Assembly: GCA_025531455.1 (NCBI GenBank)
Contig: JAMYHL010000006.1
Coordinates: 62,001 to 126,000 of the forward strand
Direction: 5' to 3'
From: Apiotrichum sp. Y4204
Taxonomy: Eukaryota > Basidiomycota > Tremellomycetes > Trichosporonales > Trichosporonaceae
DNA length: 64,000 bases
The notes below the pieces were generated by a model. The model saw only the letters and a list, made by a program, of their open reading frames with translations, searched no databases and was not told where the DNA came from. The position numbers and the translations under genes are program-made. Positions 1 to 42,100 of the stretch are shown here, one piece after another; positions within the stretch are counted from its first letter, which is position 1; every line of letters begins with the position of its first letter.

Positions 1-3000
1 TACCGGTGACGCTACTCGTGCGCCCCCAACCGACGTCTCCGCACTTGGCACTGTTCTTCCTCCTGCCTTTGCCGACACTCCTGCCACTGGTTCCACTCTT
101 CCTTCCGCTGCTGGAACCGCTACAGACGCCACTACCATGCCTGCCGCCGGTGCTACCAACCTTGCCTCGGTCCCCGGTGCTGACGCCACTGCTCCCACTG
201 CCGCCAACCCCGCTGCCGACGCTTCTAGGGGTGTCGCGACCGACGCCGCTACCGGAGCAACTCCGGCAACTGCTGACGCTACCAACCTCGCCGCCACTCC
301 TGCTATGAGCGAGCAGGCCAAGCCCGAGTCGGCTACCGCCCCCGCCGCGTCTCGTGGCCTCCCGTCTGGTGCCCTCATGGGTGCAGCCGGTGCCGGTGCC
401 GCTGGTCTTGCTGGCCTTGCCGCGGCCGCCGGTATGAAGAAGTCCGACGCCCCTGCTGCTGACGAGAAGGCTGCTGCGGGCTTCACCCCTCCTGCTGGCC
501 TCAGCAACTTCGCTGCTCAGGTTCCTGGTGCTGGTAACGCTTCCACCGCTTCTGGTGCCGATGCCACTGGCGCGGCCCCGGCTGCTGGTGGCCTCGGTGG
601 CTTTGCTTCCAACCTCCCTTCTGGCGTTACCGGCCAGGTGAACAACTATGCGACTACCGCATCCGGTTCCATTAACGACGCCTCGACCCGCGCCACGGGC
701 GCCATCACCGACCTCTCGGGCCAGGCTCCCGCGCCCCTTGCCGGTGCGGTCGGCTCCATGTCCGACCAGGCAACTGGTGGCATCAACAACCTCGCTACCC
801 AGGGCACCAACACCCTCGGCGGCCTCACGGGCCAGGCTGGCGCTGTCCCCGGTCAGGCTACAAGCGCGCTTGGCGGCATCACGGGTCAGGCGACCGATGG
901 CGTCAACAGCCTCTCCAACCAGAGCACCACTGCCCTCGGCGGTCTTTCCAACCAGGGCACTGCTGGCATTAGCAACCTCTCTAACCAGGGCACTGCTGCG
1001 CTTGGGGGCCTCTCCACACAGGCCGGCGCCCTCCCTGGTCAGGCTTCTGGCGCTTTTGGTGGCCTCGCTGGCCAGGGCACGGACGGTCTTAACAACCTCT
1101 CTGGCCAGGCTACATCTGGTCTCACCAACGTCTCTGGTCAGACCACTGACGGTATCAACAACCTTGCTGCCGGGGGTCCTGGCCCTGCTGCCGGTGCCCT
1201 TGGCGGTGTGACCGGACAAGCCACTGATGGCATCAACAACCTCTCTACTCAGGGCACCGCTGCCCTTGGCGGCCTCACCGGCGCCGGCGCCGGCGCCCTC
1301 GGTGGCCTCCAGACTCGTGCGGGCGACGTCACTGGCTCCGCTCCTTCGTTCGGCAATGTTGGTGCCTCCAACACTCTTGCCGCCGATGTACCCAGCACCG
1401 CCGGCGCGCCTTCCCTCGGCGGTGCTTCTATGAACGCCCCTTCGTCGGTCAGCGACATCAAGGCGCCCGAGGGAGTGTCCAACCTGAATGCCACCGCTCC
1501 GGAATCGCGCTCCATTCCCCTTGGTGGCATCGCCGCTGGCGGTGCTGCCGCTCTCGGCGCTGCCGGTCTCACCGGTGCTGCCCTTCACCGTGACACCAAG
1601 TCCGATGTCCCAGGTCCCACAAGCGATGTCTCGGCTCCTGCCACCCTCGCGACGGACGCGTCTACCGTTCCTGATCTTTCGTCCACGACGAACGTCCCTG
1701 ATGTCTCCTCGACTGCCCCCGGCGTCACCGGCGTCACCGGCGTCACCGGCCCCACTGGCATCGGTGGTGACCTTCCCACTGCTGGCGGCCTTTCCGGCCC
1801 TATTAGCTCTACTGGCCCTACTGGTATTGGTGGTGACCTCCCCACTGCTGGCAGCTTCACTGCGCCTACTGGCACTGCTGGTGACCTCCCCGCTCCCGGT
1901 AGCCTCACTGCTCCCACTGCCACCGTTGGCGGTGTCCCCATTGAGGGTGACTTCAACAGCCACACTGCTAACGTTGGTGACCTCCCCGCTACTGGCGGCG
2001 TCACCGCTCCCACCGGCACCGTTGGTGACATCCCCTCTGCGGGTGGCATTGCAGGCCCCACTGGCACCGCTGGTGACTTCTCCACTCAGACTGCCGGCAT
2101 GTCCGCTCCCGGCACTGCTGGCAACTTCTCCACTGACCGCTCGCTCGACCTCCCCTCCGGCGCCATTAACAACTTCTCTGCCCAGCCCACCGACAGCACG
2201 GGCCTGAACGCATCCGCCCCTGCGGACAGCAACGTCCTTGCTTCCGCTCCCACTTCCAGGTCCATCCCCGTCGGTGGCATCGCCGCTGCGGGTGCCGGAG
2301 CCCTCGCTGCCGCGGGTCTCACCGGAGCCGCGCTCTCCCACTCCGACAAGAAGGACGTTTCCTTCCCCGATGCGACCACGGCTGGCGTTTCCGGCCCCAC
2401 CGCCTCCTCGCCCACGTTTGCCACCTCCGCCCCCGGCATTGCGGCCCCTGCTGCTGCTATCCCTACTTCGCCGGGCACCGCACCCGGCGTTGAGAATGCG
2501 TCGCTTCCTACTTCGGCTCCGACCGCTTCCATTCCCGGCGTTGATGCCACCCCTACAGCCACCGCCCTCAACGTCGACGCTCCTGGCACCGCTCTCCCCG
2601 GAGCTGACTCGGTCCCGGCTGCCTCAACATCGACTGGCGCCCCGTCTTTCGGTAACACCACTTCCGAGTCGACCTTTATGGGTGCAGGCCCCGATGTCAC
2701 TGGCGCTTCTCGCGGTGTGCCCACCGCCGACCTTTCCGCTGTCGGTGCCCCCGCTGCCGCTATTCCCGTTGCTGCGTCCACTGGTACAAGCACTGACGTT
2801 CCTGCGGGTCTTTCTCGCGATCTCCCTGGCGCTGGTGACTACACCTCCTCAGCCCAGGCGCCTATGGGCGGAGCTTCGACTTTCAACACTGTTCCTGGTG
2901 TGGATGCTGCGAAGGATGGACAGGCCCCTCGTAATATCGACATTCCAGGCGAGTTCCCCGGCGAGTTCTCCGGTTCCACGGTCCAGGCCGACACGGGTCT

Positions 3001-5767
3001 TCCGAGCGGCTCCACCACAGCGGCGTACACCACGCCTAACGAGGTCCTGCCCACGACGCTTTCCAACACTGACAATGTCGCCGCACCTCAGTCGCAGTCG
3101 CTGAACGTCAACGCCTCGCCCTCCGGCCTCGACCAGAACAGCCTCACTGCCGCTATCCGTGACATTCCTGTGACTGGATCGTCCAACAAGTACTCCCCCG
3201 GTGCTGTCGCTGGTATGGCCGCCGGCGGTGCCGGTGCGCTTGCTGCCGGTGCTGGTCTCGGCGCCTACGCCGGTGGCGCCTTTGACAAGAAGGACACGAC
3301 TGTTCCTGCCGGTTTTGAGAAGCCGTCGACGGATGCCCTTGACGCTGTCTCCACCACGGCCACCCCTGGCCTTGACACTGCCAGCGCCAGCACTATCACC
3401 GGCCCTGCTCTCAGCTCTACTACCGACAACACGACCGGTGCCATGGATGCCACTCGCTCGCTTGACACTTCCGCCCCCTCCGCCCCCGGTGTCTCCAGCT
3501 TCGCGGCTGCACCCGGTGGTGCCATCGGTGGCCCCGAGACGACTCTCCCCACCCAGGACAGGACCACCACCTCCACTGGCCTTGGCAGCGACCTTCCGGC
3601 TCTCGGCACGGACTCCGCTGCCAACCTGGGCGCGAAGGACACCTCACTCACTGGCACTGGTATGGATGCCCCCCAGGTTGACGAGAACTTGCGGGGTGCC
3701 AACAGCCCCACCCCTATTCCTTCCGTTGGCGCGTACCCCGTCGCTGGAGCGGCTGCCGCTGGTGCTGGTGCCGGCGCTCTTGGAGCTGCTGCCCTTCACT
3801 CTTCGGGCCCCTCCGCCGATATCTCCAACACCGACACCTCCCTTCCTTCCGCTGACGCCTCCGTTCCGTCGGTTGACGCGCCCTCCGCGCTCGACCGCTC
3901 GGTCCCGGGTGTTGGCGCGTCAATTCCCTCGGTTGACGCTCCTACTGTTGACGCCAACGCTCCCTCGGTTGACGCTCCCAACTTCGACGCTACTGTCCCC
4001 TCCGCCAGCGCGCCTACCGCCGCTGGCTCGCTTCCGTCTTCCGACGCCCCCGGTTTCGCAGCCCCCTCTGCTGATGTCCCCTCAGCCTCCGCTCCTGAGG
4101 GTGCAATGAACCTCGCCGCTGCTCCCGTCGGCGTTCCCGCTTCGGACTCGACCACCGGCACTTTCGGAGACGCCACCACTGGTGTCTCGGACTCTCTTGA
4201 GAAGGCCCCGGCTGCTGACGCTTCTGTCCCTGCCGTTGGCGCTTCTGCCCCTGCTGTCGACGCTTCTGTTCCCGCTTCTGACAACCAGGGTCTCAGTGGT
4301 GGTGCCATTGGCGGCATTGCCGCCGGCGTCGGTGCTGCTGCCCTCGGTGCTGGAGCCTTTGCCGGTTCCAAGTTCAAGTCTGGCGGTGATGCCGCTACGA
4401 CCGCCACGAACGATGGCTCTACTGCTGTCAAGGGTGGCCTGGGCGGCTTCAACGACAAGATCGGCTCGTTCTCCACCCAGGCTACCGACGGCGTAACCGG
4501 TGTCCAGAACACGGCCACCGGCGCCATCGGCAACGCGTCGACCTTTGCCAACGACAACATTTCCAAGGTCCCCACCACGGGCCCTCTTGGCTCCGTCGGC
4601 ACCTTTGCCAAGGACACCTCCACCAAGACTACTGGCGCTGCCACTGGCGCTGTTGACCAGGCCTCGACCGCTGCCACCGGTGCGATCGGCAAGGTCCCGT
4701 CCATGGGCGTCGCGTCTGGCAAGGAGGCATCGGCTTCTACTGGGGACGGTGCCGCGCCGCAGAAGATGGGCTTCGGCCGTCGTCTCTCCGGTGTCTTTAA
4801 GGGCCTCGGTGGAAAGAAGCACCAGGACGAGCTCGCGGAGGCTAACGCTGCTGGTGTCCCGGCTCTGCCTGCTGGTGTCGCTGCGGGTGGTGCCGCCGCC
4901 GCTGGCGCTGGCGCCACTGCCGCCGGCCTTGCTGCGTCGGGCAAGGACAAGGATGTTGCTGGTGCTCCCACTACCGACACCTCGGTCACCGCCCCCTCGG
5001 CCACTGCCCCTTCGGCTACCGCCCCCTCGACCACCGCTCCCTCCGCGGACGTCACTGCCCCCGCAACTGACGCTTCCGTCAGTGCACCTGCTACGGAGAC
5101 ACCCACTGCGGGTTCTGGCCTCGGCTCGTCGTTCAACAAGATCCAGGACTCCACCACTGGCGCCGTGACTGGTGCTACTACTGGGGCAACTGGTGTCGCT
5201 ACCGGCGCCGCTCAGTCTGCCAACGACTTTGGCACCTCGACCGTCTCGTCTGGCAAGAACCTCGCTTCCGACACTGCCACCTTTGGCAAGAACTCGGCGT
5301 CCTCTGGCATCGACTTCAGCAAGGACATTGGCAAGCAGTCATATGCCTCAGGCCTCACCTACGGCAAGGACACCGTTTCGGGTGCCGGTAACCTGGCCAA
5401 GGGCACGACCGACTCGGCCACCGACTTTGGTAAGAACACGACCGACTCGGCCACCAACTTTGCCAAGGGCACTGTCGGCAAGGCTGGTAATGTTGGGTCG
5501 TCGGCGCACGGCGAGGGCAACAACTTTGCCAAGGACACCTCGACCGCCTTTGGCCTCTCGTCGGCTGCCCAGACCCCAGGACAGACTCCCGACCAGACCC
5601 CTTCGCACTCGCGTTTCGCTTCGACTTCGGTCCCCACCACGCCTGTCACTCCGGCAGCCGCGCGGCACAATGCCGAGCCGTCGTCCTCGTCGGCCGTCAA
5701 GAAGCGCAAGTCGGGCTTCTTCCACAAGCTCAAGCAGGTGTTCAAGCACGACAAGAAGGCTGTTTAA
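1..5767 (+). CDS. Giant Ala/Gly/Ser/Thr-rich repeat protein, 5' end outside the window
   Basis: The frame is open from the first bases and ends with TAA at 5765-5767; the first in-window ATG (137) is probably internal. More than 1,900 residues are visible and no intron is needed. Composition is almost entirely A, G, S, T, P, D, V. Visible architecture: (1) about seven Gly/Ala-rich hydrophobic segments resembling glycine zippers, each preceded by an SRSIP-like or similar lead and most followed by a charged Lys/Asp patch, near 350-445, 1505-1600, 2255-2350, 3160-3300, 3715-3800, 4290-4385 and 4855-4950; (2) a block of GQAT/NNLS/ALGGL repeats at 700-1300; (3) PTGTxGD repeats at 1730-2110; (4) SVDAP repeats at 3830-4000; (5) LEA-like FGKN/AKGT/DSAT repeats at 5220-5560; (6) a basic C-terminus rich in K, F and H (5695-5764), echoed by a GRRLSGVFKGL patch near 4780. 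No enzyme domain is seen. A structural or stress-related, membrane-associated role is only a guess. Confidence 0.8.
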   Translation, partial: TGDATRAPPTDVSALGTVLPPAFADTPATGSTLPSAAGTATDATTMPAAGATNLASVPGADATAPTAANPAADASRGVATDAATGATPATADATNLAATPAMSEQAKPESATAPAASRGLPSGALMGAAGAGAAGLAGLAAAAGMKKSDAPAADEKAAAGFTPPAGLSNFAAQVPGAGNASTASGADATGAAPAAGGLGGFASNLPSGVTGQVNNYATTASGSINDASTRATGAITDLSGQAPAPLAGAVGSMSDQATGGINNLATQGTNTLGGLTGQAGAVPGQATSALGGITGQATDGVNSLSNQSTTALGGLSNQGTAGISNLSNQGTAALGGLSTQAGALPGQASGAFGGLAGQGTDGLNNLSGQATSGLTNVSGQTTDGINNLAAGGPGPAAGALGGVTGQATDGINNLSTQGTAALGGLTGAGAGALGGLQTRAGDVTGSAPSFGNVGASNTLAADVPSTAGAPSLGGASMNAPSSVSDIKAPEGVSNLNATAPESRSIPLGGIAAGGAAALGAAGLTGAALHRDTKSDVPGPTSDVSAPATLATDASTVPDLSSTTNVPDVSSTAPGVTGVTGVTGPTGIGGDLPTAGGLSGPISSTGPTGIGGDLPTAGSFTAPTGTAGDLPAPGSLTAPTATVGGVPIEGDFNSHTANVGDLPATGGVTAPTGTVGDIPSAGGIAGPTGTAGDFSTQTAGMSAPGTAGNFSTDRSLDLPSGAINNFSAQPTDSTGLNASAPADSNVLASAPTSRSIPVGGIAAAGAGALAAAGLTGAALSHSDKKDVSFPDATTAGVSGPTASSPTFATSAPGIAAPAAAIPTSPGTAPGVENASLPTSAPTASIPGVDATPTATALNVDAPGTALPGADSVPAASTSTGAPSFGNTTSESTFMGAGPDVTGASRGVPTADLSAVGAPAAAIPVAASTGTSTDVPAGLSRDLPGAGDYTSSAQAPMGGASTFNTVPGVDAAKDGQAPRNIDIPGEFPGEFSGSTVQADTGLPSGSTTAAYTTPNEVLPTTLSNTDNVAAPQSQSLNVNASPSGLDQNSLTAAIRDIPVTGSSNKYSPGAVAGMAAGGAGALAAGAGLGAYAGGAFDKKDTTVPAGFEKPSTDALDAVSTTATPGLDTASASTITGPALSSTTDNTTGAMDATRSLDTSAPSAPGVSSFAAAPGGAIGGPETTLPTQDRTTTSTGLGSDLPALGTDSAANLGAKDTSLTGTGMDAPQVDENLRGANSPTPIPSVGAYPVAGAAAAGAGAGALGAAALHSSGPSADISNTDTSLPSADASVPSVDAPSALDRSVPGVGASIPSVDAPTVDANAPSVDAPNFDATVPSASAPTAAGSLPSSDAPGFAAPSADVPSASAPEGAMNLAAAPVGVPASDSTTGTFGDATTGVSDSLEKAPAADASVPAVGASAPAVDASVPASDNQGLSGGAIGGIAAGVGAAALGAGAFAGSKFKSGGDAATTATNDGSTAVKGGLGGFNDKIGSFSTQATDGVTGVQNTATGAIGNASTFANDNISKVPTTGPLGSVGTFAKDTSTKTTGAATGAVDQASTAATGAIGKVPSMGVASGKEASASTGDGAAPQKMGFGRRLSGVFKGLGGKKHQDELAEANAAGVPALPAGVAAGGAAAAGAGATAAGLAASGKDKDVAGAPTTDTSVTAPSATAPSATAPSTTAPSADVTAPATDASVSAPATETPTAGSGLGSSFNKIQDSTTGAVTGATTGATGVATGAAQSANDFGTSTVSSGKNLASDTATFGKNSASSGIDFSKDIGKQSYASGLTYGKDTVSGAGNLAKGTTDSATDFGKNTTDSATNFAKGTVGKAGNVGSSAHGEGNNFAKDTSTAFGLSSAAQTPGQTPDQTPSHSRFASTSVPTTPVTPAAARHNAEPSSSSAVKKRKSGFFHKLKQVFKHDKKAV

Positions 5768-6271
5768 GCAGTAGTGCGTCGCGGCCGAGCCACACGCCTC
5801 ATCCATCTCTATCTATACCCCTGTTCGATCTCAATCTCAGTTCATCTCCTGTTTTACTTGCGGTGCTGCCGCGTAATCGATTCCAGAGTAATACGTACGC
5901 GTACGAACACTGTGCCCGGAGCTAGGAGCGGAAGTATGTTTCCACGTTTTGTTTTTTCTTTTGTCGCCTTTCGCTTTACTTTCGCTTGCTTGCCGCAATG
6001 ATCACACAATGGCCCAAGGGCTGTTGTCTTTAATTACTTGGATGCAGATACATGAGTTTCTACTGGTGCCGTCGCTGTGAGCTGAGCAGTTTATTTAGTG
6101 GCAAGGAGAACGAAGTTGGAAGTACCGTCGGAGATGCTCCGCTACAGTTTTCTCCTCCCCGATGAAGGGCAGTAGATACACTTGGTCCTCACGTATGTAC
6201 ACTAACTGCATAACGCTCTTCACTATCATCAACATCTACCCTCACTGTCACTACATTCGCCAATCACTAAT
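5768..6271. other. Convergent 3' intergenic region
   Basis: This stretch separates two convergent genes (the giant repeat protein and the Med19-like gene). It should hold both 3' UTRs. It is pyrimidine- and T-rich around 5940-6000; no coding exon or RNA gene was recognised. Confidence 0.5.
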
Positions 6272-20465: not shown

Positions 20466-20472
20466 TATATAA
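20466..20472 (+). promoter_or_regulatory. TATA box of the repeat-peptide precursor gene
   Basis: TATATAA lies 113 nt upstream of the ATG at 20579, followed by a CT/CA-rich leader typical of highly expressed fungal genes. Confidence 0.6.
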
Positions 20473-20578: not shown

Positions 20579-21109
20579 ATGAAGACCTCCTTCGCCCTCG
20601 CTGTCGCCATCCTTTCGAGCGTCGTCATGGCCGCTCCCGTCCTCGAGGAGCGTGAGGCCAACTCCGGCTGGGGCCAGGGTGGCTGTGGCGGCCACGCCTG
20701 CTGGAAGCGTGAGGCTGAGCCTGAGCCTGTCGTCGAGCGCGACAGCTGGGGCCGCGGCCCGTGCAGCGGGGAGGCCTGCTGGAAGCGCGAGGCCATGCCC
20801 GAGCCCGTCCCGGAGCCCGAGCCCATTCTCGAGGAGCGTGAGGCCAACTCCGGCTGGGGCCAGGGCGGTTGCGGTGGCCATGCCTGCTGGAAGCGTGAGG
20901 CTAAGGCTGAGCCTGAGCCTGAGCCTGTCGTCGAGCGCGACAGCTGGGGCCGCGGCCCGTGCAGCGGTGAGGCCTGCTGGAAGCGCGAGGCCATGCCCGA
21001 GCCCGTCCCTGAGCCCGAGCCCGTTCTCGAGGAGCGTGAGGCCAACTCCGGCTGGGGCCAGGGTGGTTGCGGTGGCCACGCCTGCTGGAAGCGCGAGGCT
21101 GAGGCCTAA
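20579..21109 (+). CDS. Secreted Kex2-processed repeat-peptide precursor (alpha-factor-like organisation)
   Basis: One 176-residue exon. Residues 1-19 form a signal peptide (MKTSFALAVAILSSVVMAA). The rest is an alternating A-B-A-B-A array. Peptide A (residues 26-42, 88-104, 154-170) is EANSGWGQGGCGGHACW; peptide B (55-68, 121-134) is DSWGRGPCSGEACW. Each copy is followed by a Lys-Arg Kex2 site and then an Glu-Ala-starting acidic spacer rich in Pro-Glu that ends in a single Arg, like the EA spacers trimmed by Ste13 in yeast alpha-factor. Each peptide has two Cys separated by four residues and ends CW, suggesting a small disulfide loop. The array repeats at 62 and 66 residues with near-identical DNA. 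This fits the KEP class (Kex2-processed repeat proteins) and recalls alpha-pheromone or dikaritin RiPP precursors. No Cys-aliphatic-aliphatic-X end is present, so it is not a canonical basidiomycete lipopeptide pheromone. The receptor or product is unknown. Confidence 0.85.
   Translation: MKTSFALAVAILSSVVMAAPVLEEREANSGWGQGGCGGHACWKREAEPEPVVERDSWGRGPCSGEACWKREAMPEPVPEPEPILEEREANSGWGQGGCGGHACWKREAKAEPEPEPVVERDSWGRGPCSGEACWKREAMPEPVPEPEPVLEEREANSGWGQGGCGGHACWKREAEA
20642..21097 (+). repeat. Tandem coding repeats of 186 and 198 bp
   Basis: The CTCGAGGAGCGTGAGGCC start of the unit recurs at 20642, 20828 and 21026. The 12-bp length difference comes from extra Glu-Pro spacer codons in the second unit. 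Copies are almost identical even at silent sites. Confidence 0.9.
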
Positions 21110-27450: not shown

Positions 27451-29077
27451 ATGTCGTGCGCAAACCCCGATGAGGCTGCTGCAAAGCAGGTGATGCCTCG
27501 TGAGTGTGCTTTGAATCAAGGCGTTGCATACATTTGCTGACTCCAGGTCGCGAGCCCGTTCCCAAGGGCAAGTGTTCTCGTTGTCGTGAGGCCAGAAGCC
27601 TGTTTATCGTGCGCAGCGTCACGTTTTGCAAGTATGTCTACTGTTCTTGCAATCCTTAATTTCCCTCTTGCTGACGCGCCGCAGGAGCTGCTTTGAACAC
27701 AATGTCGGAACACGGCTAGCGCGCGTCCTGAACCCATCCTTGTTGCCGACTGGAAGCCAGAAGAAGGCATTCAATCTTCGCCCGACGCCACGAGATTCCG
27801 GAGTGGTCATCGCGCTCTCTGGCGGAGCAGGGAGTACGGCTTTATTGGAGCTGCTGGCTGATCGCGACTACTTTGCCAAAAACGAAGCAGCAGAGTTCGA
27901 CTACCGCAAGGGCGGCCGACCGCCGGTGTGGACGAAGGGGTACGCGGTCCATGTCGACTTTTCGGGCGTGGCGGCTGTCGCGAGTCAGACGGAGCGACTG
28001 CGGGCCTTCGTCGAAGACCGTGGATTGAGCTTTGTGGCTGTCAAAGCTGAGGACGCTTTTGATCCGGCCTTCCGGTCCCGCATCGCTCACAATGCGGATA
28101 AGGAAGCCGCGCGGAGCTTGAGCGTCAATCTGGCGGAGTCTCAGCTGCCGCTCGTATCCACTTCTTGCTCGACCTCTTCAACGACGCCGCTGGGGCAACT
28201 CCAGGCGCTACTCGCAGCGCTCCCGCCGCCCTCGCGACCGGCATTCCTGGAGAATATCCTCGACGCACTGCTCGCGAGTGTCGCGGAGACACTTCCGAAC
28301 ATCTCCCACCTTCTGGTCGGCGAGACATCCACCAGGGAGGCTCAGCGCGTCATATCGGGGACAGCATCCGGGCGCGGATGGGCACTCCCCCTTGAGCTGG
28401 CGCGGAGCCGCGCGCTGCCGAACCACGTTGTGCGCATCAAAGCAATGAAGGAAGTGTCGTTGAAGGAGGCGGCGATCTGGTGCCATGGCCGTGGTCTGTC
28501 CACGTTCAATGAGCGGCGGTGGGATTCTACTGCTGGTGGAGCACGGAGAGATGCGAGAGGCAAGGGTACTATTGCCAGTATAGAGGCCCTCACAGAACGT
28601 ACGTCGAGATTGCTTCACAGCTGCTGACTCTCAGGCTTCGTTGCGAGCTTGAGCGTCACCCATCCGTCGACCGTCACGACCATCAACAAAACAGGCGACA
28701 AACTGCGATTCACAGGCGACTTGAACGGACCCATCTGTCCCGTCTGCGAGATGTGGGTTGTGCAACATGTGCGACGCTGACATTGCAGGCCAGTTGACCC
28801 ATCCGCAACGGAGTGGAAAGCAAATGCGGCTCTCACCTCCCTCCCTGGCCGCGGACTACCGGCCGACGAGCCTGCGCAGACCTCTGAGAAGACCAAGCTG
28901 GCACCGTTGCTGTGCTATGCCTGCTTGACGACGTTCACACCCCTGTCAGCAGCGCAGCGCGACCGGCCGACAGACCAGGCGGTCGCCCTCCCAGTCTGGA
29001 TCGGCGAGCGAGTTTTTCACCGCTCCATGACCCGGACCGAGATGAAGGCGCAGGTGGCGGAGTTTCTGCTAGAGTAG
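27451..29077 (+). CDS. CTU2: Cytoplasmic tRNA 2-thiolation protein 2 (Ctu2/Ncs2)
   Basis: Five exons. The spliced N-terminus MSCANPDEAAAKQVMP leads to a C-x2-C (KGKCSRCR) and, across an intron, C-KSCF, as in Ctu2. A degenerate PP-loop follows (VVIALSGGAGSTALLELL), then a long Rossmann-like ATP-pyrophosphatase domain with HVDFSGV and LLVGETSTREAQRVISGTASGRGWALPLE. The C-terminal exons contain a second zinc-like cluster (GPICPVCEMPVDP ... CYACLTTF). Ctu2 partners Ctu1/Ncs6 to thiolate U34 of tRNA Lys, Glu and Gln in the cytosol. Splices verified at 27499/27547, 27630/27685, 28599/28635 and 28752/28789 region. Stop TAG 29075-29077. Confidence 0.92.
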
Positions 29078-35519: not shown

Positions 35520-38500
35520 CTAGACTTTCCCTGCAAGTGTCAATGGGGGACCGAACAGCGGAAACGTAGTTGTACGCACATGTTTCTGGCCCAAAACCAC
35601 CGGGGGGCGTCGGTGTAACTGATGTGCCCATCCAGTCCTTGGCTGCAAACGTTCAGGAATTGCTCTGCACATTGTAGCAAGAAAACTCACTGTTCCGGTA
35701 GACGGTGTTGCCCCACCAGTTCAATTTGGCATTGGGTAGCTTGAGAGTCACGAAGACGAAAATAGCAGCCAACATTGTACCGACATCGAGTGCCGCACTC
35801 AAGACATAGTTGTACTTGGACCACCAGGCGAAGTGGTAGCGACGAATCCAGTACTGGAAAATGAAGCCGAAGACGAGGAAACTCGATATGTTGATACCGG
35901 TCGCGGGCGGCGTGAAAATGGCCACACAGAAAATGAGAGTCACGTTGATGTTGCGTAGGAACGACTTGGGATACTTGCGACACCACAACCAGAAAGGCAC
36001 TGGGAGGACAGCGCCAACGAGCAACATGTAAAGTTGAGGGTTGTAAATGCCACCTTTGCTAAAGAGTCGCTCGGGTCCGATAAGACCCCAGATAATCGAA
36101 GCCGCAAAGCCGACTCGCTGCGACGAACAAGTGAGGTAATCCTTTTGGCGGTACGTGCAGATGTCCGGGATGGTGGCGAACATCCACTCCTTGACACCAA
36201 CTTGGACAAGGGTGCAGATTGCACAAGCCGACATTTGTGCAAAGAACATTGACCGCGGGGGAATCTTCATGTAATGACCGGCCTTCATGTCCTTGGAAAA
36301 TTCCATTGCCGAGCCCAGGGTTGCGACGCAGAAGGTCTTGAAGATCATACCGGACAAGGGTCGACCCTGGAAAATGTATCCCGGAATAAGCTCGGCGATT
36401 AAGTTGATAGACGGCCGAAGGTTGGATAGGGCGTACATGATGCAGGCCGGAAGAATGTAGATAAACGCCAGGAGGAGGGAGACAAGGTAACCCCATACTG
36501 GCAGATGGGTAGGAAATACCTCGACGGTGATAAGGCCCAGAATGACGAATATGGTCAGCGACAGAAGATACCACCACTGTGGAATCTCTGGGTAAGCCTT
36601 CATGAGCCGCATGTGAATGTCCTCGGGCTCAGTCGACGCCTTCTTGACGGTAGCCACAATTCGAGGACCATGAACCAGAGCGGTATACACAATGAGGGAC
36701 GTCACAAGGGCATACGCCAACATGTAGGTCATCGTAAATGACGCGGTCAGGTATACGGGCGAGTATTGGGCGTAGGCAGTTGTGTTGAGCGTGTAACCAC
36801 TTGTAAGGACATTGGACACATTGAAAACGTTGCCAAATCGGTCCGCAGCCTGGAGAGACGAAATCGGGACGTATTGTGTGTACCACGCCTGTATGATCAG
36901 CAATGTCGCGAACTGTAAACGTACGTTTGTGTAGTAGATAATTGGCACAACAACCCAGTAAAACAACACAAAACCAATGGCAACGTTGACTTGTGCCCAC
37001 CAAGGCGCGGCGAGAGGCGATCCAATCCAAGCAATCTGAGCCCAATCGAATGTGAGGAAGCCCATGCCAAGGCCAGTACTAACACCGAACAACTGGTTCA
37101 CAACATTACTGTCCGGGAAAATCCAACAAACCCAGGAGAAGTACGACAGCGCGGTGAACAGGAAGCCTGGATATTAGTTTTCCCTCAAGATAATGAAACT
37201 CGGCGGGCACTCACCGGGCAGGAAGTAATAGGCGAACGCCAGACTTGTGAAGAGCGTGAAGAACCTCAAGCGCGTCATGCTGCCTGCGCCGGCATCTGCC
37301 TCGGCATGCAAAGTGTTAATGTTCGTGGTGGACACGAGCACGCCGGGCCAAATCATCGAGGCAGGCCAAACCACAAATTGACGCGCAATACCGGCCATAG
37401 ACAGCCCAATCAATTGGGACGTAAGACCGTAAAGGAAGTTGAACACTACCGAGAGTGGCTTGTGGTAGAACTTGTCACTAATAACGATCGTGTTCAATGC
37501 GTATGGCGCCGCGATCGAAACGTTCGCCATCATCATGATGATTGTATGTTCCTTGACATTGAAAGGGCAGGGGTTGAGGCTGAATTTCCGTCCGCCAAGC
37601 CATCGAGGTAATGTCCATTCGCGCATTGGCAGACACCAGGCGAAGAAACGGCCAATAGGGTAAGCGACGACCTGAACGACAAGTAGAGGCAGATTAGGAC
37701 TGGGGTTGCGGAACAGGAAAAACACGTTTGTTCCTCCAGCAGCTGCGCAGAGGAAAATACCAATGAGCCAAGAACGTAAGGTGAGGGCCGGCATGTCGGG
37801 GTCGTCAATGTTCGACACCGACGCGCGAACTTCCGCGTAGGGACTGTCCTCGTCCATCCAATCGAGTGTATCGTCTGGGTCTGTGGATGACTTCAACTCG
37901 CCACCGACACCGTCACCCCAAGTGGTAGCTCCGTCGGGTACCGTCGCATCGCCAGTCAATTCCGTCATACGGCTCTGTATGGTGTGAGGGCGATACTGCG
38001 ACTCGGTTTCGTCTGTCCCGTCGGTCCAATCGGACATCATCGTTGACGGCCGTCCTGTTGACGGTCGCCCTGTTGATGGTCGTCCCGTTGATGGACGTCC
38101 AGTCGATGGTCGAGCCGATGATTTTCCGGTGTTGAGTCGGGACATACGCATAAAGCGGCCACCGAGGTTGCCGAACAGGTGGTTTCCAGTCCCAGGACCA
38201 TCAGACGCTTCTGTCGACAGAGTATCCGCGGTATCTGGGGGCACCTTGTCGGAGTTGAGCGGTAGTACCTCGGTTGAGCCGTATGTATGCCGTTGTCGCA
38301 GCCCACCGAGTGAAAAGGCAAAAACACCGTTGTTTAGATTGTCTCGTCCACTATATGGAGGCGGGTGCGATGTGTTGTATCTTCTCCCCTCCTCAAACGT
38401 GTAACCAGTGACCGAAGCAGGCTCCATCATATTGTGCTCGGCGTCAAATGAAGACACCGGAGTATCCGCTAATGTCCCCGAGGAAGTGGTGTCACTTGGT

Positions 38501-39156
38501 CCCTTTGGAGCGGTCGGTGGCCGCTGGAAGGCGAATACGCCGGCGACAGACTCCTGGCTGAGGCCCACTGGCTCCTGTTCGGCGGTTCTCGCCTCCACAC
38601 CAGAGCGAGAAGCATGGTCTGGCCGATCTGCTGGCTCAAAACGCACTTCTCGTTGGGTACCGGTATCGCCGCGAACGGGCAGCGTAATGGAGGCAGGTGA
38701 CGCGGATCTGTCTGAGGTCCTGACTGTTGCCGCGTTTCCAAACGCGTAGTCGTGAGCGTGAAGATCCCGAGGCTTCGCAGTCTCATCTGCCGAGGGTGTG
38801 TCCTGCGGTGGTAATAATGGAGGTTGTTCTCGCCGTGTGAATGATGGTCGGACCTGGGAAGAGAGGATGGAAACCGGATGCAACTCGATCCCTTTGTCGT
38901 CCTCGTCGTCGTCTGATCCCAATTCACTGGACGCATCGGAGTCGGCTCCCGCAAACGCGAATGGTGATGGAGTTATAACCCCAATGCCTGGTGAGGGTAT
39001 TGGCGCGTCATCGCCCTCAGCTGTCGACGTCAGGGGAGCGGCTCGTAGCAAATCTTGGCTCGCATCATTAACGGTCGTTCCGGTCGATTCTGTGGGGGAA
39101 GCCGGATTTGAAGGGGGTGGCGACGGCCCTGGACTGGAGGACGGTAACATGACCAC
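35520..39156 (-). CDS. OPT-family oligopeptide transporter with a long N-terminal extension
   Basis: Four exons, about 1,160 aa. The first ~440 residues are hydrophilic, Ser/Pro/Thr-rich and probably cytosolic, with five RPSTG repeats (about 38043-38112). The membrane part starts near LRSWLIGIFLCAA and has many transmembrane segments. Family marks are NPCPFNVKEHTIIMMMANVS (usual NPG is changed to NPC), ISDKFY, FVVWPASMIWPGVLV, GHYMKIPPRSMFFAQ, DICTYRQKDYLTCSSQRVGF and IIWGLIGPERLFSKGGIY. The last two tiny exons restore the conserved end LNWWGNTVYRNTKDWMG ... GGFGPETWKV; without them the protein would read into intron sequence. OPT proteins are proton-coupled importers of oligopeptides or metal-peptide conjugates in the plasma membrane. 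The substrate is not predictable. Intron 1 sits at 37215/37171 after YYFLPG. Confidence 0.95.
38043..38112 (-). repeat. 15-bp coding minisatellite (RPSTG)n in the OPT N-terminus
   Basis: Five tandem 15-bp units encode RPSTG repeats in the OPT N-terminal extension. The repeats differ mainly at silent positions, so the protein repeat is older than the most recent DNA copying. Confidence 0.85.
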
Positions 39157-42100
39157 AAGTTTCCGAGGAAGGCGTCTTGAGAGTTGAGTCCGACGCGCGG
39201 GGTGTGCGGAAACACCGATGGACGCCGAAGAGGAAAAGCGACGCGATTAGAAGTTGATAAAAACCTTGTGCAAGGTGAATGGTAGTATGCGCAACGATGC
39301 ACGTGTCGATACTGCCACTCGGCGACCTGCAAGAACGATGTGCAGGCTACTGGAAGCGATGGCGAGCGACGTGTTGAGACCCAATGGCAAAACCTCGACG
39401 ACAGGCAGGGATCGATGGCCTCTGTAAAGCCTCCTCAGCGGCGACCTTCTGAAAGAGGTGCTGGAGGCTTTGCGAACGCGCTCGATGGAGGGGCAACCAG
39501 TCTGCGTGAGGTTGTGGTCGAGGAGTGTGTTGTGGAAAGATGATGGATAAGAGTGTGGAGGATGCAACGACGAGGAACACGATACCGTGAGGTACGAGGG
39601 AACTGCGAGAGCGGAGAGAGGCAGGATGGCTCCGGGTGCTCGGGAGGTTGCAGGCTTGCACGAGGCAAAGGATGCAGGGGTGGTACGGGTGGTAGATGGC
39701 CCAGGCGCAGAGGGGCGGAGCCTAGCACAGGATGAGGAGGGTTATGGGTGTTCAAGGTTTTGATGCACCACAGCCGAGCCAAAAAAATAATAATAAAAAA
39801 ATCCCACAATCACGGAAGAGTGTTTAGAAAGGAGCCTGAAAGAGCAGAGGAAGAAAAATAAAAATTAAATAAAAAAGAACAGAAAATGAGGGAAAAGGGC
39901 AAGGCGAGACCCAAAAGCTCTTTGGCAAAGCTACCGCTCGAGTGCAGTGTCGCACAAGAAAGCAATGTCGGAGGCACGCGACGGTAAAGAACAGGGCCTG
40001 AACGCGGAGACGAGTGTTCGGTCGGCGAGAGCTGGGGCAAAGGTTTTCGGAGCGAGATAGACGATGGCCGACGATGGTGGATGGCGGAGATGGCAACCGA
40101 CAGAGTCCAGAGAACGAAAAGGGGAAGGCCAGAATGGAAGGGTCGACAGGTGGGGGCTCAGAGGTTCAGAGCCTTCAGAGCGCTCCAGAGCAGAGGCTTT
40201 TCCAGATGCCAGGGAGCCAAAGACAGGAGTCAGGGGCCAGGGGCAAAGGAAGGCCGAGGCGCCGAGGCGAATTCCGGGGCTACACCGCAAGAAAGGAACC
40301 GTGTACGTACAATGCCGATCGCGCCAGTTCACTTTCTGCTCCCGATTGAACTTTAATACTCCGTCTACAATAAAATGACAGGAGCACCGAGAGGACAGCG
40401 GTCGGGACAATACAACGGGGGCTTTGAGACGGTGGTGCAGGTGACGATAGTGGTGGTGGGAATGTTCCAGCTCAGAGTGGAGGAACAGATCTTGTCCTAA
40501 ATGGGGGCTGGTACACACGAGTTACCGAGATTCGGAAGCAGGGAGGATAGAACCTGGTCGTCTGATGGGATTGGCGGTGATGACAGTGGCGGAGATGGAG
40601 ATGGTGATGGAGATGGTGATGGAGATGGTGATGAAGATCGGACTAGGTATGATGATGACACTACAATTCTGCAGGAACACAATCAAAGAAAGTTTGTTCC
40701 TGGCCGAGTTGAATTGAGCACAGAACACGCCGTGTCCAGCAATCCCTGTCGAGCAAGCTTAACCACTCGAGCTAGCCGCTGGAGAAGTTCTGGTACTGCT
40801 ATATACTCTGCACTACGCAGAGCTGCAGGAAGGGTCACAGATCAACCGGGAAGAATAGGAAGAAGAAGCTTTGCGTTCAAACTTGCCGTGGAGATGCCCT
40901 GGGCCTTATGTATCCAAGATCCGGAGGGCAGAGATCCAGAGATCCTCCTCCCACCCTCCTTGTTGTCGACCATCGTCCTGGTCTTGCCTCGCTGGATCGC
41001 TGGGCTTGTCTCGCCGATGATGATGAGGGGCTCGCACTTCACGCCTCTTTGCTTGGCAGCGTGATCCTGCCGAGTAAAATCACCCCATCTCTCACGGGCT
41101 GCCGCTCTGTGGCGGAATCGCGGAATTGCGGACTTGATTGATGCCATGAGGAGGAAATGTTCTGAAGCCACAGGAACGAGTGATGCCGTGCATACCGCGC
41201 AGCTAGCGCAGCTCAACCTGTGATCTGTGACCCTGGTTGAGTGTCCAGTCCTTTGGGACAGTAACTTTGAACTCTTTCATTTCTCAGACCTCAAACATGC
41301 TTCTCCGCATGTGCCTCTCCGTCCCGTCGCCCAAAACGGACTGTTTCTCGTTCCACTGGTGTTCCAGTTCTGTATCTTCGGACTATTGTTCTCTCTATAT
41401 CCCGGTGCCTTCTGTCTCTTCCGGACAGTCATGCGGCTTTCTCCCAGAGAACAGAGTCGGAGGTCGACGCTCTTGACACAACGAGCAGCTACCTAGAAGC
41501 GACAAGTTTCATCCGCTGGATGCATTCCTCTCCCCTAATGGAAGATCTCTGATTGCAATCAAACAAGCTGGGGAATGGAAAAAGAAGAAGGTCGAGCTGG
41601 AGGTTCAGTGCAAGGGGGAGACCGAGCGGAAGGGGCGAGGGGAGTGCGCGAGAGGGCCAAACATCAACGCTCCACACAATTCCCAAGACGCCCGGTCCAA
41701 GGGGATCCAGTTCGGCCAGTTCCCGGGTGTTACTTTGGAGAGACCTGCAGATCAGCAGTACCAGGACAAGTTCCTGATCGCGCAAGTGAACGGGTCATCA
41801 GGTCATGCAAGTCATGCAAGAGAACTCTTGCGGGGAAGAGGCGGTCAGTGTTGCGGGGAGGCAATCCGTAACTTGACCCCATTTCCTCGAATTACCGTAT
41901 ATTCTCACTTTCGATATCCGCACACGTTGAGGACCGCATGAAGTGCCCGATATGGTATAGGGTGATATGGTGTCCCCATACGCGTCATACACGCCGCAAA
42001 GGCGCAGGAAGTTGTTTATCATACCGCGGAGCACGGTGACAACGCCTGATGTTACCGCCCTAGCCAGCCAGCATCACCTTACATACCGGGTTACCACCTG

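What the first reader, a model, noticed from the sequence alone, without database searches (positions are those of the whole stretch)
20579..21109. Alpha-factor-like repeat-peptide precursor with two alternating disulfide-type peptides
Seen: signal peptide; five Cys-containing peptides in strict A-B-A-B-A order (three of type A, two of type B); each followed by a Lys-Arg cleavage site and then an EA-starting Pro-Glu spacer, the layout of yeast alpha-factor. Known: basidiomycete pheromones are normally short farnesylated CAAX lipopeptides, while this Kex2/EA architecture belongs to ascomycete alpha-pheromones, KEP signalling peptides and dikaritin RiPPs; many ascomycete alpha-pheromones also have two Cys and end in CW. 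Inference: the gene may encode two distinct small cyclic peptides released together, possibly a signalling system or an antimicrobial not previously described in this lineage.
Basis: partly seen in the sequence, partly recalled or inferred. Interest (0 to 1): 0.88.

Follow-up and report, generated by a model that had tools for sequence, protein, structure and literature searches.

The report
Alternating two-peptide alpha-factor-style precursor gene
This fungal gene encodes one protein carrying three copies of one short two-cysteine peptide and two of another in strict alternation, likely cut out and secreted as signals in the way yeast makes its alpha mating factor, and it is one of at least ten such genes in a genome where no alpha-factor receptor was detected.

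Summary
Window 20579-21109 (+) is one open reading frame: signal-like start, then peptides A-B-A-B-A (A = NSGWGQGGCGGHACW, B = DSWGRGPCSGEACW), each followed by Lys-Arg. It is a Kex2-processed repeat protein (KEP) with the Ste13-type X-Ala/X-Pro spacer of ascomycete alpha-pheromone precursors. The same genome (two collinear subgenomes) holds at least ten such precursors; their predicted peptides end in Trp, and 5 of 11 share a W-G-x-G-x-C-x-G-x-x-C-W core. The homoeologous gene on contig C94 encodes only type B. Copies within arrays differ almost only synonymously (13 of 14 variable codon columns). A Kex2-type domain, DPP-IV-type protease genes and STE3 genes are present in two copies each; no STE2 or UstYa match was found (neither search had a positive control). 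The closest named relative, from Vanrija albida (Trichosporonales), has a similar mixed layout. A published precedent exists: a Trichosporon oleaginosus KEP giving QSWGGCGGRGTPCW (PMC6339444). So this is a new member of a known but functionally unexplained kind. Best reading: secreted non-mating signalling peptides. The cyclic RiPP reading is not supported; an antimicrobial role is untested. The lineage (probably Trichosporonales) is inferred.

The parts
20466..20472 (+). TATATAA box, 106 bases between it and the ATG, also present in the C94 homoeologue
   Evidence: read directly; role inferred
20579..21109 (+). precursor gene, single open frame, 176 aa plus stop
20579..20632 (+). predicted signal peptide MKTSFALAVAILSSVVMA (followed by AP, as in all seven precursors aligned in A1)
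   Evidence: sequence by eye and alignment A1; no predictor was run
20660..20704 (+). peptide A copy 1, NSGWGQGGCGGHACW
20705..20710 (+). Lys-Arg predicted Kex2 site
20741..20782 (+). peptide B copy 1, DSWGRGPCSGEACW
20783..20788 (+). Lys-Arg predicted Kex2 site
20846..20890 (+). peptide A copy 2
20891..20896 (+). Lys-Arg predicted Kex2 site
20939..20980 (+). peptide B copy 2
20981..20986 (+). Lys-Arg predicted Kex2 site
21044..21088 (+). peptide A copy 3
21089..21094 (+). Lys-Arg predicted Kex2 site, followed by terminal EAEA

Best explanation
The gene encodes a precursor with a signal-like start holding peptides A, B, A, B, A separated by Lys-Arg and X-Ala/X-Pro spacers, which is likely secreted, cut by Kex2 and trimmed by Kex1 and a Ste13-type dipeptidyl aminopeptidase, and would release two short Trp-ended, probably disulfide-closed peptides that likely act as non-mating cell-to-cell signals. 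Shown by the sequence: the order of parts, the Lys-Arg sites, the dipeptide phase of the spacers, a family of at least ten precursors, and near-purely synonymous variation among copies. Inferred: secretion; cleavage at Lys-Arg; cleavage after the single Arg of VVER/EER just before each peptide (supported because the first copies on C106 and C6 carry EER in the place where C152 carries EKR, and only a cut there would give the same mature peptide as the later copies); the disulfide; the signalling role. The receptor is unknown: no Ste2-type gene was detected, so either another receptor or re-import by an oligopeptide transporter would be needed.
For: Architecture. Lys-Arg follows 26 of 28 peptide copies in the ten precursors; the two without it end the protein (C153, C57). 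Spacer phase: in tails following a Lys-Arg, A or P stands at the second place of the dipeptide in 93 of 106 positions against 14 of 109 at the first place, counting the 18 distinct tails only (140 of 155 against 29 of 158 for all 28 tails). With spacers delimited by my own core pattern, 26 of 28 copies are fully consumed by X-A/X-P steps (here I chose the boundary, and four copies of C94 and two of C139 have an empty spacer after the ER site). Selection: 13 of 14 variable codon columns among copies are synonymous-only, expected about 0.2. Family. Machinery: P_proprotein domain (Kex2-type) on C114 and C149; DPP-IV-like genes with DPPIV_N and Peptidase_S9 domains on C57 and C153, the C57 copy with a hydrophobic N-terminal stretch and GWSYGG by eye, best PDB matches DPP4. 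Homologue: Vanrija albida P0001, GWGxGG- and DSW/DNW-type peptides ending in W before KR/RR. KEP peptides have been detected in basidiomycete fruiting bodies with Ste13-type trimming, and products made in Pichia pastoris suggest cuts after single Arg (PMC9769878, passages). The authors of PMC6339444 propose hormone-like roles for Ste13-signature KEPs (section 15).
Against: No expression, peptide or phenotype data. Six KEP knockouts in Coprinopsis showed no phenotype in axenic culture, and its authors prefer a role towards the biotic environment (PMC9769878, passages). One precursor (C102:537465, QWGGFGGGQRDPQW) and the Vanrija peptides have no Cys, so the disulfide is not essential to the family. 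The ER cut is non-canonical. No word of 8 or 9 bases is shared by 3 or more of the four paired promoters. 2 of 28 spacers (C153, C57) contain ES, which breaks the dipeptide run. No receptor candidate was identified.
Confidence: 0.6

Rival explanations
1. The peptides are secreted antimicrobial or effector-like peptides aimed at other organisms, made from the same kind of precursor.
For: Small two-Cys peptides in a multigene family; the Coprinopsis KEP authors favour interaction with the biotic environment after knockouts gave no phenotype (PMC9769878 passages); PMC6339444 section 15 lists an effector role as a non-exclusive hypothesis.
Against: Peptides are Gly-rich and only 12-18 residues with little net charge, unlike cationic antimicrobial peptides (recalled; no charge was computed); near-absolute amino acid conservation among array copies; the Ste13-type signature is otherwise typical of alpha pheromones (PMC6339444 sections 8 and 9).
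Confidence: 0.2
2. They are true sexual alpha-type pheromones working through an undetected or very diverged Ste2-like receptor.
For: Architecture and CW ends as in Neurospora-type CCG-4, found by profile search (P0003, P0005); C102:478131 encodes RWGGGCGGQPCW, close to ascomycete ...GQPCW ends (the GQPCW ending is partly recalled, one copy in P0003 has it).
Against: No STE2 candidate (no positive control); STE3 on two contigs; passages of PMC6730849 say that each Trichosporonales MAT allele they examined carries STE3 and a single pheromone precursor gene close to it; T. [quoted passage not shown] no precursor match or 39 lies on the STE3 contigs C13 and C51. A CaaX gene was not identified here, so the usual pheromone of this strain is not shown.
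Confidence: 0.08
3. A dikaritin-type RiPP: the cores are cyclised by UstYa-like oxidases into modified natural products.
For: Dikaritin precursors have the same signal peptide and Kex2-separated repeats; and 17 of 76 KEPs homologous to six putative basidiomycete pheromones (one of them the T. oleaginosus protein) had DUF3328 genes nearby (PMC7329392 passages).
Against: No PF11807 match in the genome (no positive control); no Tyr in any of the eleven predicted peptides; no UstYa-type domain in the ten window frames scanned, of 43 frames of 200 aa or more.
Confidence: 0.05
4. A structural cell-wall or surface repeat protein that is not cleaved (or a Rep1-like surface peptide).
For: Repetitive, low complexity; weak sub-threshold Pfam similarity to acidic repeat proteins.
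Against: Lys-Arg follows 26 of 28 copies; dipeptide phase of the spacers; Rep1 lacks the Ste13 signature (PMC6339444 section 15).
Confidence: 0.05

Closest known systems
Trichosporon oleaginosus KEP giving QSWGGCGGRGTPCW (Le Marquer et al. 2019, PMC6339444)
   Same: order of yeasts (as inferred here), Kex2 sites, Ste13 signature, Trp near the start, two Cys, CW end
   Different: one repeated peptide named; Cys spacing C-x6-C against C-x4-C here; a pattern built on its core found nothing in this genome. Its full precursor was not seen here.
Vanrija albida hypothetical protein Q8F55_000669 (P0001)
   Same: signal-like start MKTS, KR/RR sites, D/E-A/P spacers, one precursor holding a GWGxGG-type and DSW/DNW-type peptides, ending in W
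   Different: no Cys in the cores (APRW ends); different copy number and order
Ascomycete alpha-pheromone precursors of the CCG-4 kind (P0003, P0005 Copromyces/Neurospora; P0008 Amphichorda)
   Same: Kex2 sites, XA/XP spacers, two Cys, CW end; found by profile search
   Different: core WC-x6-CW in most copies against WGxGxC-x4-CW; used with Ste2 (recalled), for which no match was found here; essentially one peptide type
Agaricomycete KEPs shown to be processed (PMC9769878)
   Same: Basidiomycota, Ste13 signatures, Trp-ended peptides such as -AADW and QYKAPSW; cuts after single Arg suggested by products made in Pichia
   Different: described as linear peptides; no Cys or disulfide is mentioned in the text; knockouts without phenotype
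Cryptococcus Qsp1 quorum-sensing peptide (PMC7537855, start of abstract only)
   Same: secreted signalling peptide in the Tremellomycetes; imported by oligopeptide transporter Opt1
   Different: precursor and sequence were not compared here; no shown relation

Membership tests
KEP (Kex2-processed repeat protein) | secretory signal peptide | tested here: inconclusive
   typical hydrophobic start with VMA|AP by eye, aligned in seven precursors; no predictor available
KEP (Kex2-processed repeat protein) | repeated peptide units separated by dibasic Kex2 sites | tested here: met
KEP (Kex2-processed repeat protein) | release of the peptides in vivo | not testable with these tools
   needs mass spectrometry
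Ste13-signature (alpha-type) KEP | XA/XP dipeptides after the Kex2 site, in phase | tested here: met
   93 of 106 against 14 of 109 (distinct tails of all ten precursors)
Ascomycete alpha-pheromone | WC-x6-CW-type core | tested here: not met
   A and B are WGxGxC-x4-CW against WC-x6-CW in most copies of P0003, P0005, P0008
Ascomycete alpha-pheromone | cognate Ste2 receptor in the genome | tested here: inconclusive
   PF02116: 0 candidates, but no control genome rang
Basidiomycete a-type pheromone | short precursor without signal peptide, C-terminal CaaX | tested here: not met
   ends in EAEA after the last KR; has a signal-like N-terminus
Dikaritin RiPP | UstYa-type oxidase gene nearby | tested here: inconclusive
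   PF11807: 0 candidates in the genome, no control rang; none in ten window frames scanned
Dikaritin RiPP | aromatic Tyr-containing core for cyclisation (recalled) | tested here: not met
   no Tyr in any predicted peptide
Pfam MF_alpha families | profile match | tested here: not met
   six precursors, no match over cut-off; the CCG-4 relative P0003 does not match either, so this is weak evidence

The most novel reading that the evidence does not exclude
A basidiomycete yeast lineage runs an alpha-factor-style peptide hormone system without Ste2: a multi-locus family of Trp-ended ligands, two of them co-released from one alternating precursor, whose mature sequences differ between the two parental subgenomes at all four paired loci, read by an unknown receptor or by re-import through an oligopeptide transporter.
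Probability: 0.3. Interest if true: 0.8.

Novelty: new member of a known kind. Interest (0 to 1): 0.52.

Why it matters
Alpha-type pheromone precursors are regarded as an ascomycete matter. A case in Trichosporon was reported in 2019 and left unexplained. Here a single genome shows a family of at least ten such genes with related cores, conserved copies and matching processing-enzyme genes, so ligand, processing and receptor questions can be tested directly. If the peptides are signals, a second, non-Ste2 peptide-signalling system exists in basidiomycetes, and a genome carrying two versions of each ligand is a natural test bed for ligand-receptor divergence.

Tried and rejected
Rejected: chance ORF (synonymous-only variation, family). 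Antisense ORFs of 169-171 aa over the gene were taken as a by-product of GC-rich codon phase. UstYa/RiPP reading. Ste2 pheromone reading. Shared promoter motif: no word of 8 or 9 bases in 3 or more of the 4 paired loci; 14 seven-mers in 3 or more loci, above the mean (6.6) and the maximum (13) of 100 controls that did not keep words contiguous; not pursued. A CaaX pheromone gene next to STE3: a scan of 10 kb on C13 and C51 gave three frame pairs, none convincing; the gene may lie outside those stretches. A pattern on the T. oleaginosus core found nothing. Protein search with the window protein alone found nothing; alignments did, but only the roughly 8,000 candidates sharing most words were scored. 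Of the 13 hits, P0009-P0019 (a mushroom KEP, a Paraconiothyrium precursor, unnamed KEPs, two unnamed proteins with yeast alpha-factor Pfam domains, a prawn protein) share mainly the spacer composition, judged by eye, and were not counted as relatives of the core. The phage-record search was empty. Ribosomal L5 against the PDB did not fix the lineage. One search translated the protease gene in a wrong frame; two searches gave the right one. Structure prediction was not run: peptides of 14-15 residues.

Rows dropped or cut: the C152 precursor reads on mechanically past KRDE to 190 aa, possibly into an intron; I cut it at KRDE. C20 is truncated by the contig end. C1:856289 (78% to C102:537465 over 50 aa, stops in the match) and C79:136558 were not read. 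In one search, 18 of 26 matches lie in precursor genes; the other 8 were read and show no KEP-like frame.

Full report
What is there. Window 20579-21109 (+) is a single open frame of 176 aa. After a signal-like start (MKTSFALAVAILSSVVMA|AP) come NSGWGQGGCGGHACW (A) three times and DSWGRGPCSGEACW (B) twice, in order A-B-A-B-A, each followed by Lys-Arg. The protein ends in KR-EAEA. A TATATAA box lies at 20466-20472 and is kept in the homoeologue.

Is it more than chance. Seven sets of peptide copies were compared within their own genes; five of them vary, at 14 codon columns in all, and 13 of the 14 vary only synonymously. A random change would be synonymous about 0.2 of the time (binomial 1.7e-8 with 0.21, treating columns as independent, which gene conversion may violate). 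The one exception is a Gly-to-Pro change in one copy on C94.

The genome. G000 has 48.9 Mb in 182 contigs. Window 10264-30569 aligns along C94:331001-351000, mainly in two long pieces of 87.8% and 92.2% identity with overlapping repeat matches at the precursor itself; C106/C6 (87.8%), C13/C51 (93.5%) and C152/C20 (82-93% over pieces above 1 kb, less in one short one) are paired too. So the assembly holds two collinear subgenomes, from a hybrid or a very heterozygous diploid. Hybrid species are known in Trichosporon and Cutaneotrichosporon (PMC6642101 and PMC6730849, passages). I infer Trichosporonales from this, from the nearest named relative (Vanrija albida) and from the T. oleaginosus peptide; no rDNA or multi-gene test was made.

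The family. Ten precursors were read. C139 (window): A-B-A-B-A. C94: B four times, once as DSWGRPPCSGEACW, and no A. C152: QWGAGTCSGKACW x5; C20: QWGAGTCGGKACW x4, cut by the contig end. C106: QHGFGGGGCGGGHNPVCW x2; C6: GFGGGGCGGGHNPVCW x2. C153: QWGSGGCGGNACW once, at the very C-terminus; C57: QWGTGDCSRNACW likewise. C102:537465: QWGGFGGGQRDPQW x3, without Cys. C102:478131: RWGGGCGGQPCW once. That is 28 copies of eleven distinct predicted peptides; all are read here as ending in Trp, and ten of the eleven have two Cys. Five of the eleven fit WGxGxCxGxxCW exactly. A further partial match on C1 was not read. A DNA pattern for WGxGxCxGxxC gave 26 matches against 1 for the reversed control; 18 of the 26 lie in these genes and the other 8 show no such frame. 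At all four paired loci the predicted peptides differ between subgenomes: A present or absent, Ser/Gly, QH lost, and 4 of 13 residues at C153/C57 against 6 of 74 in the rest of that precursor (Fisher 0.039). That last contrast is suggestive only.

How it would be processed. Tails following Lys-Arg are built of X-Ala/X-Pro dipeptides in phase: A or P at the second place in 93 of 106, at the first place in 14 of 109 (18 distinct tails). In C152, C20, C106, C6 and C102 the run leads exactly to the peptide. In C139 and C94 it stops at VVER or (I/V/A)(L/V)EER, immediately before D of peptide B or EA-N of peptide A. In C106 and C6 the first copy follows EER-DA.LA.EA.(D/E)P and the second follows KR-EA.EA...; both give the same peptide only if the single Arg of EER is cut, and C152 has EKR there. 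So I infer a cut after ER. Products suggesting cuts after single Arg were seen when Coprinopsis KEPs were made in Pichia pastoris (PMC9769878 passages). Machinery: Kex2-type P domain on C114 and C149 (only this domain was searched and its DNA was not read), and DPP-IV-type proteases on C153 and C57 with both DPPIV_N and Peptidase_S9 domains, best PDB matches DPP4 (C57 copy), with a hydrophobic N-terminal stretch and GWSYGG read by eye in the C57 copy. Kex1 was not searched.

What it is not, as far as tested. No STE2 (PF02116) and no UstYa (PF11807) candidate was found, but neither search rang in any control genome, so absence is not proven. STE3 (PF02076) is present on C13 and C51, in two matching pieces each, which shows that the method can find a split fungal receptor. 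In the window I scanned 10 of 43 stop-to-stop frames of 200 aa or more against Pfam; 8 matched (ribosomal L5, AAA domain, fungal transcription factor domain, enoyl-CoA hydratase-like, two pieces of an OPT transporter, ABC transporter, eIF2B-like), and none suggests a peptide-modifying cluster.

Relatives. The window protein alone found nothing. The profile A1 found 8 proteins, A2 found 13, in each case among only the roughly 8,000 candidates sharing most words. Closest in design is Vanrija albida P0001: RGWGTGGSAPRW, KDSWIKGGGAPRW and KDNWTKGTGGSAPRW in one precursor, which suggests that a two-type precursor is older than this species and that C94 lost type A. Unnamed P0006 and P0007 carry QSGGFGGCGGWGSPACW- and QGFGGCGGWGGGPQCW-type units like C106. 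Two unnamed proteins (P0002, P0004) carry GWGCGQRGQPCG units. Neurospora-type CCG-4 pheromones (P0003, P0005) and an Amphichorda protein (P0008) also match; with such short, biased sequences I cannot separate common descent from convergence.

Prior knowledge. Le Marquer et al. 2019 (PMC6339444; sections 8, 9 and 15 read) reported QSWGGCGGRGTPCW with Ste13 signature in T. [quoted passage not shown] Umemura 2020 (PMC7329392; passages; the author name is recalled and also) found 76 KEPs homologous to six putative basidiomycete pheromones, the T. oleaginosus protein among the six, and lists a KEP type shared by Yarrowia and Cutaneotrichosporon (five KEPs in four strains); its sequences were not seen here, so close relatives of these genes may already be in that survey's tables. 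The same survey gives an average of 1.00 KEP per Tremellomycetes strain and 46 strains of that class without any; ten in one genome looks high, though two subgenomes and my search are not comparable with that count. Six core words of the peptides described here occur in no paper of the held library (supplements are not searched). Searches showed, by title, no follow-up on Trichosporon or Vanrija alpha-like peptides among the papers listed (2 of 2, 8 of 112, 10 of 32).

Judgement. The kind is known, its function is open. I commit to secreted non-mating signalling peptides made by the alpha-factor route (0.6), with antimicrobial or effector use the main rival (0.2). Interest is moderate: the precedent lowers novelty; the family, the two-peptide alternation, the subgenome-specific peptides and the undetected Ste2 raise it.

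Noticed in passing
window 35653-39246 (-): OPT oligopeptide transporter gene about 15 kb from the precursor; in Cryptococcus the secreted peptide Qsp1 is imported by Opt1 (PMC7537855, abstract start). The link here is only proximity.
   Followed up: partly
L070 (C153:164529) and L071 (C57:79861): The DPP-IV-like (Ste13-type) gene lies on the same contig as the QWGxGxC precursor in both subgenomes, about 69 kb away; may be coincidence.
   Followed up: partly
L006/L060 and L061 (C153, C57): The precursor of the single-copy QWG peptide carries a second candidate, CRGTQCW-KR, unchanged between subgenomes while the main peptide changed at 4 of 13 residues; the only codon changes in it are those four, all nonsynonymous.
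   Followed up: partly
L019-L022, L030, L031 (C13, C51): Both subgenomes carry a STE3 gene in a 10 kb stretch 93.5% identical, suggesting the same STE3 allele class in both parents.
   Followed up: no
window 1488-5774: Long overlapping open frames on both strands, rich in Ala, Pro and Ser, of a repetitive GC-rich region; gene content not resolved.
   Followed up: no
window 27590-28627 (+): ORF with an SGGxxS-type ATP-binding look (CTU2/NCS2-like, recalled); no Pfam match at 0.001.
   Followed up: no
P0013 (Paraconiothyrium brasiliense): An ascomycete precursor that also mixes two peptide types (NCRFPGMPCS and AWHSGFRRLPGQPIG), so mixed precursors are not limited to this lineage.
   Followed up: no
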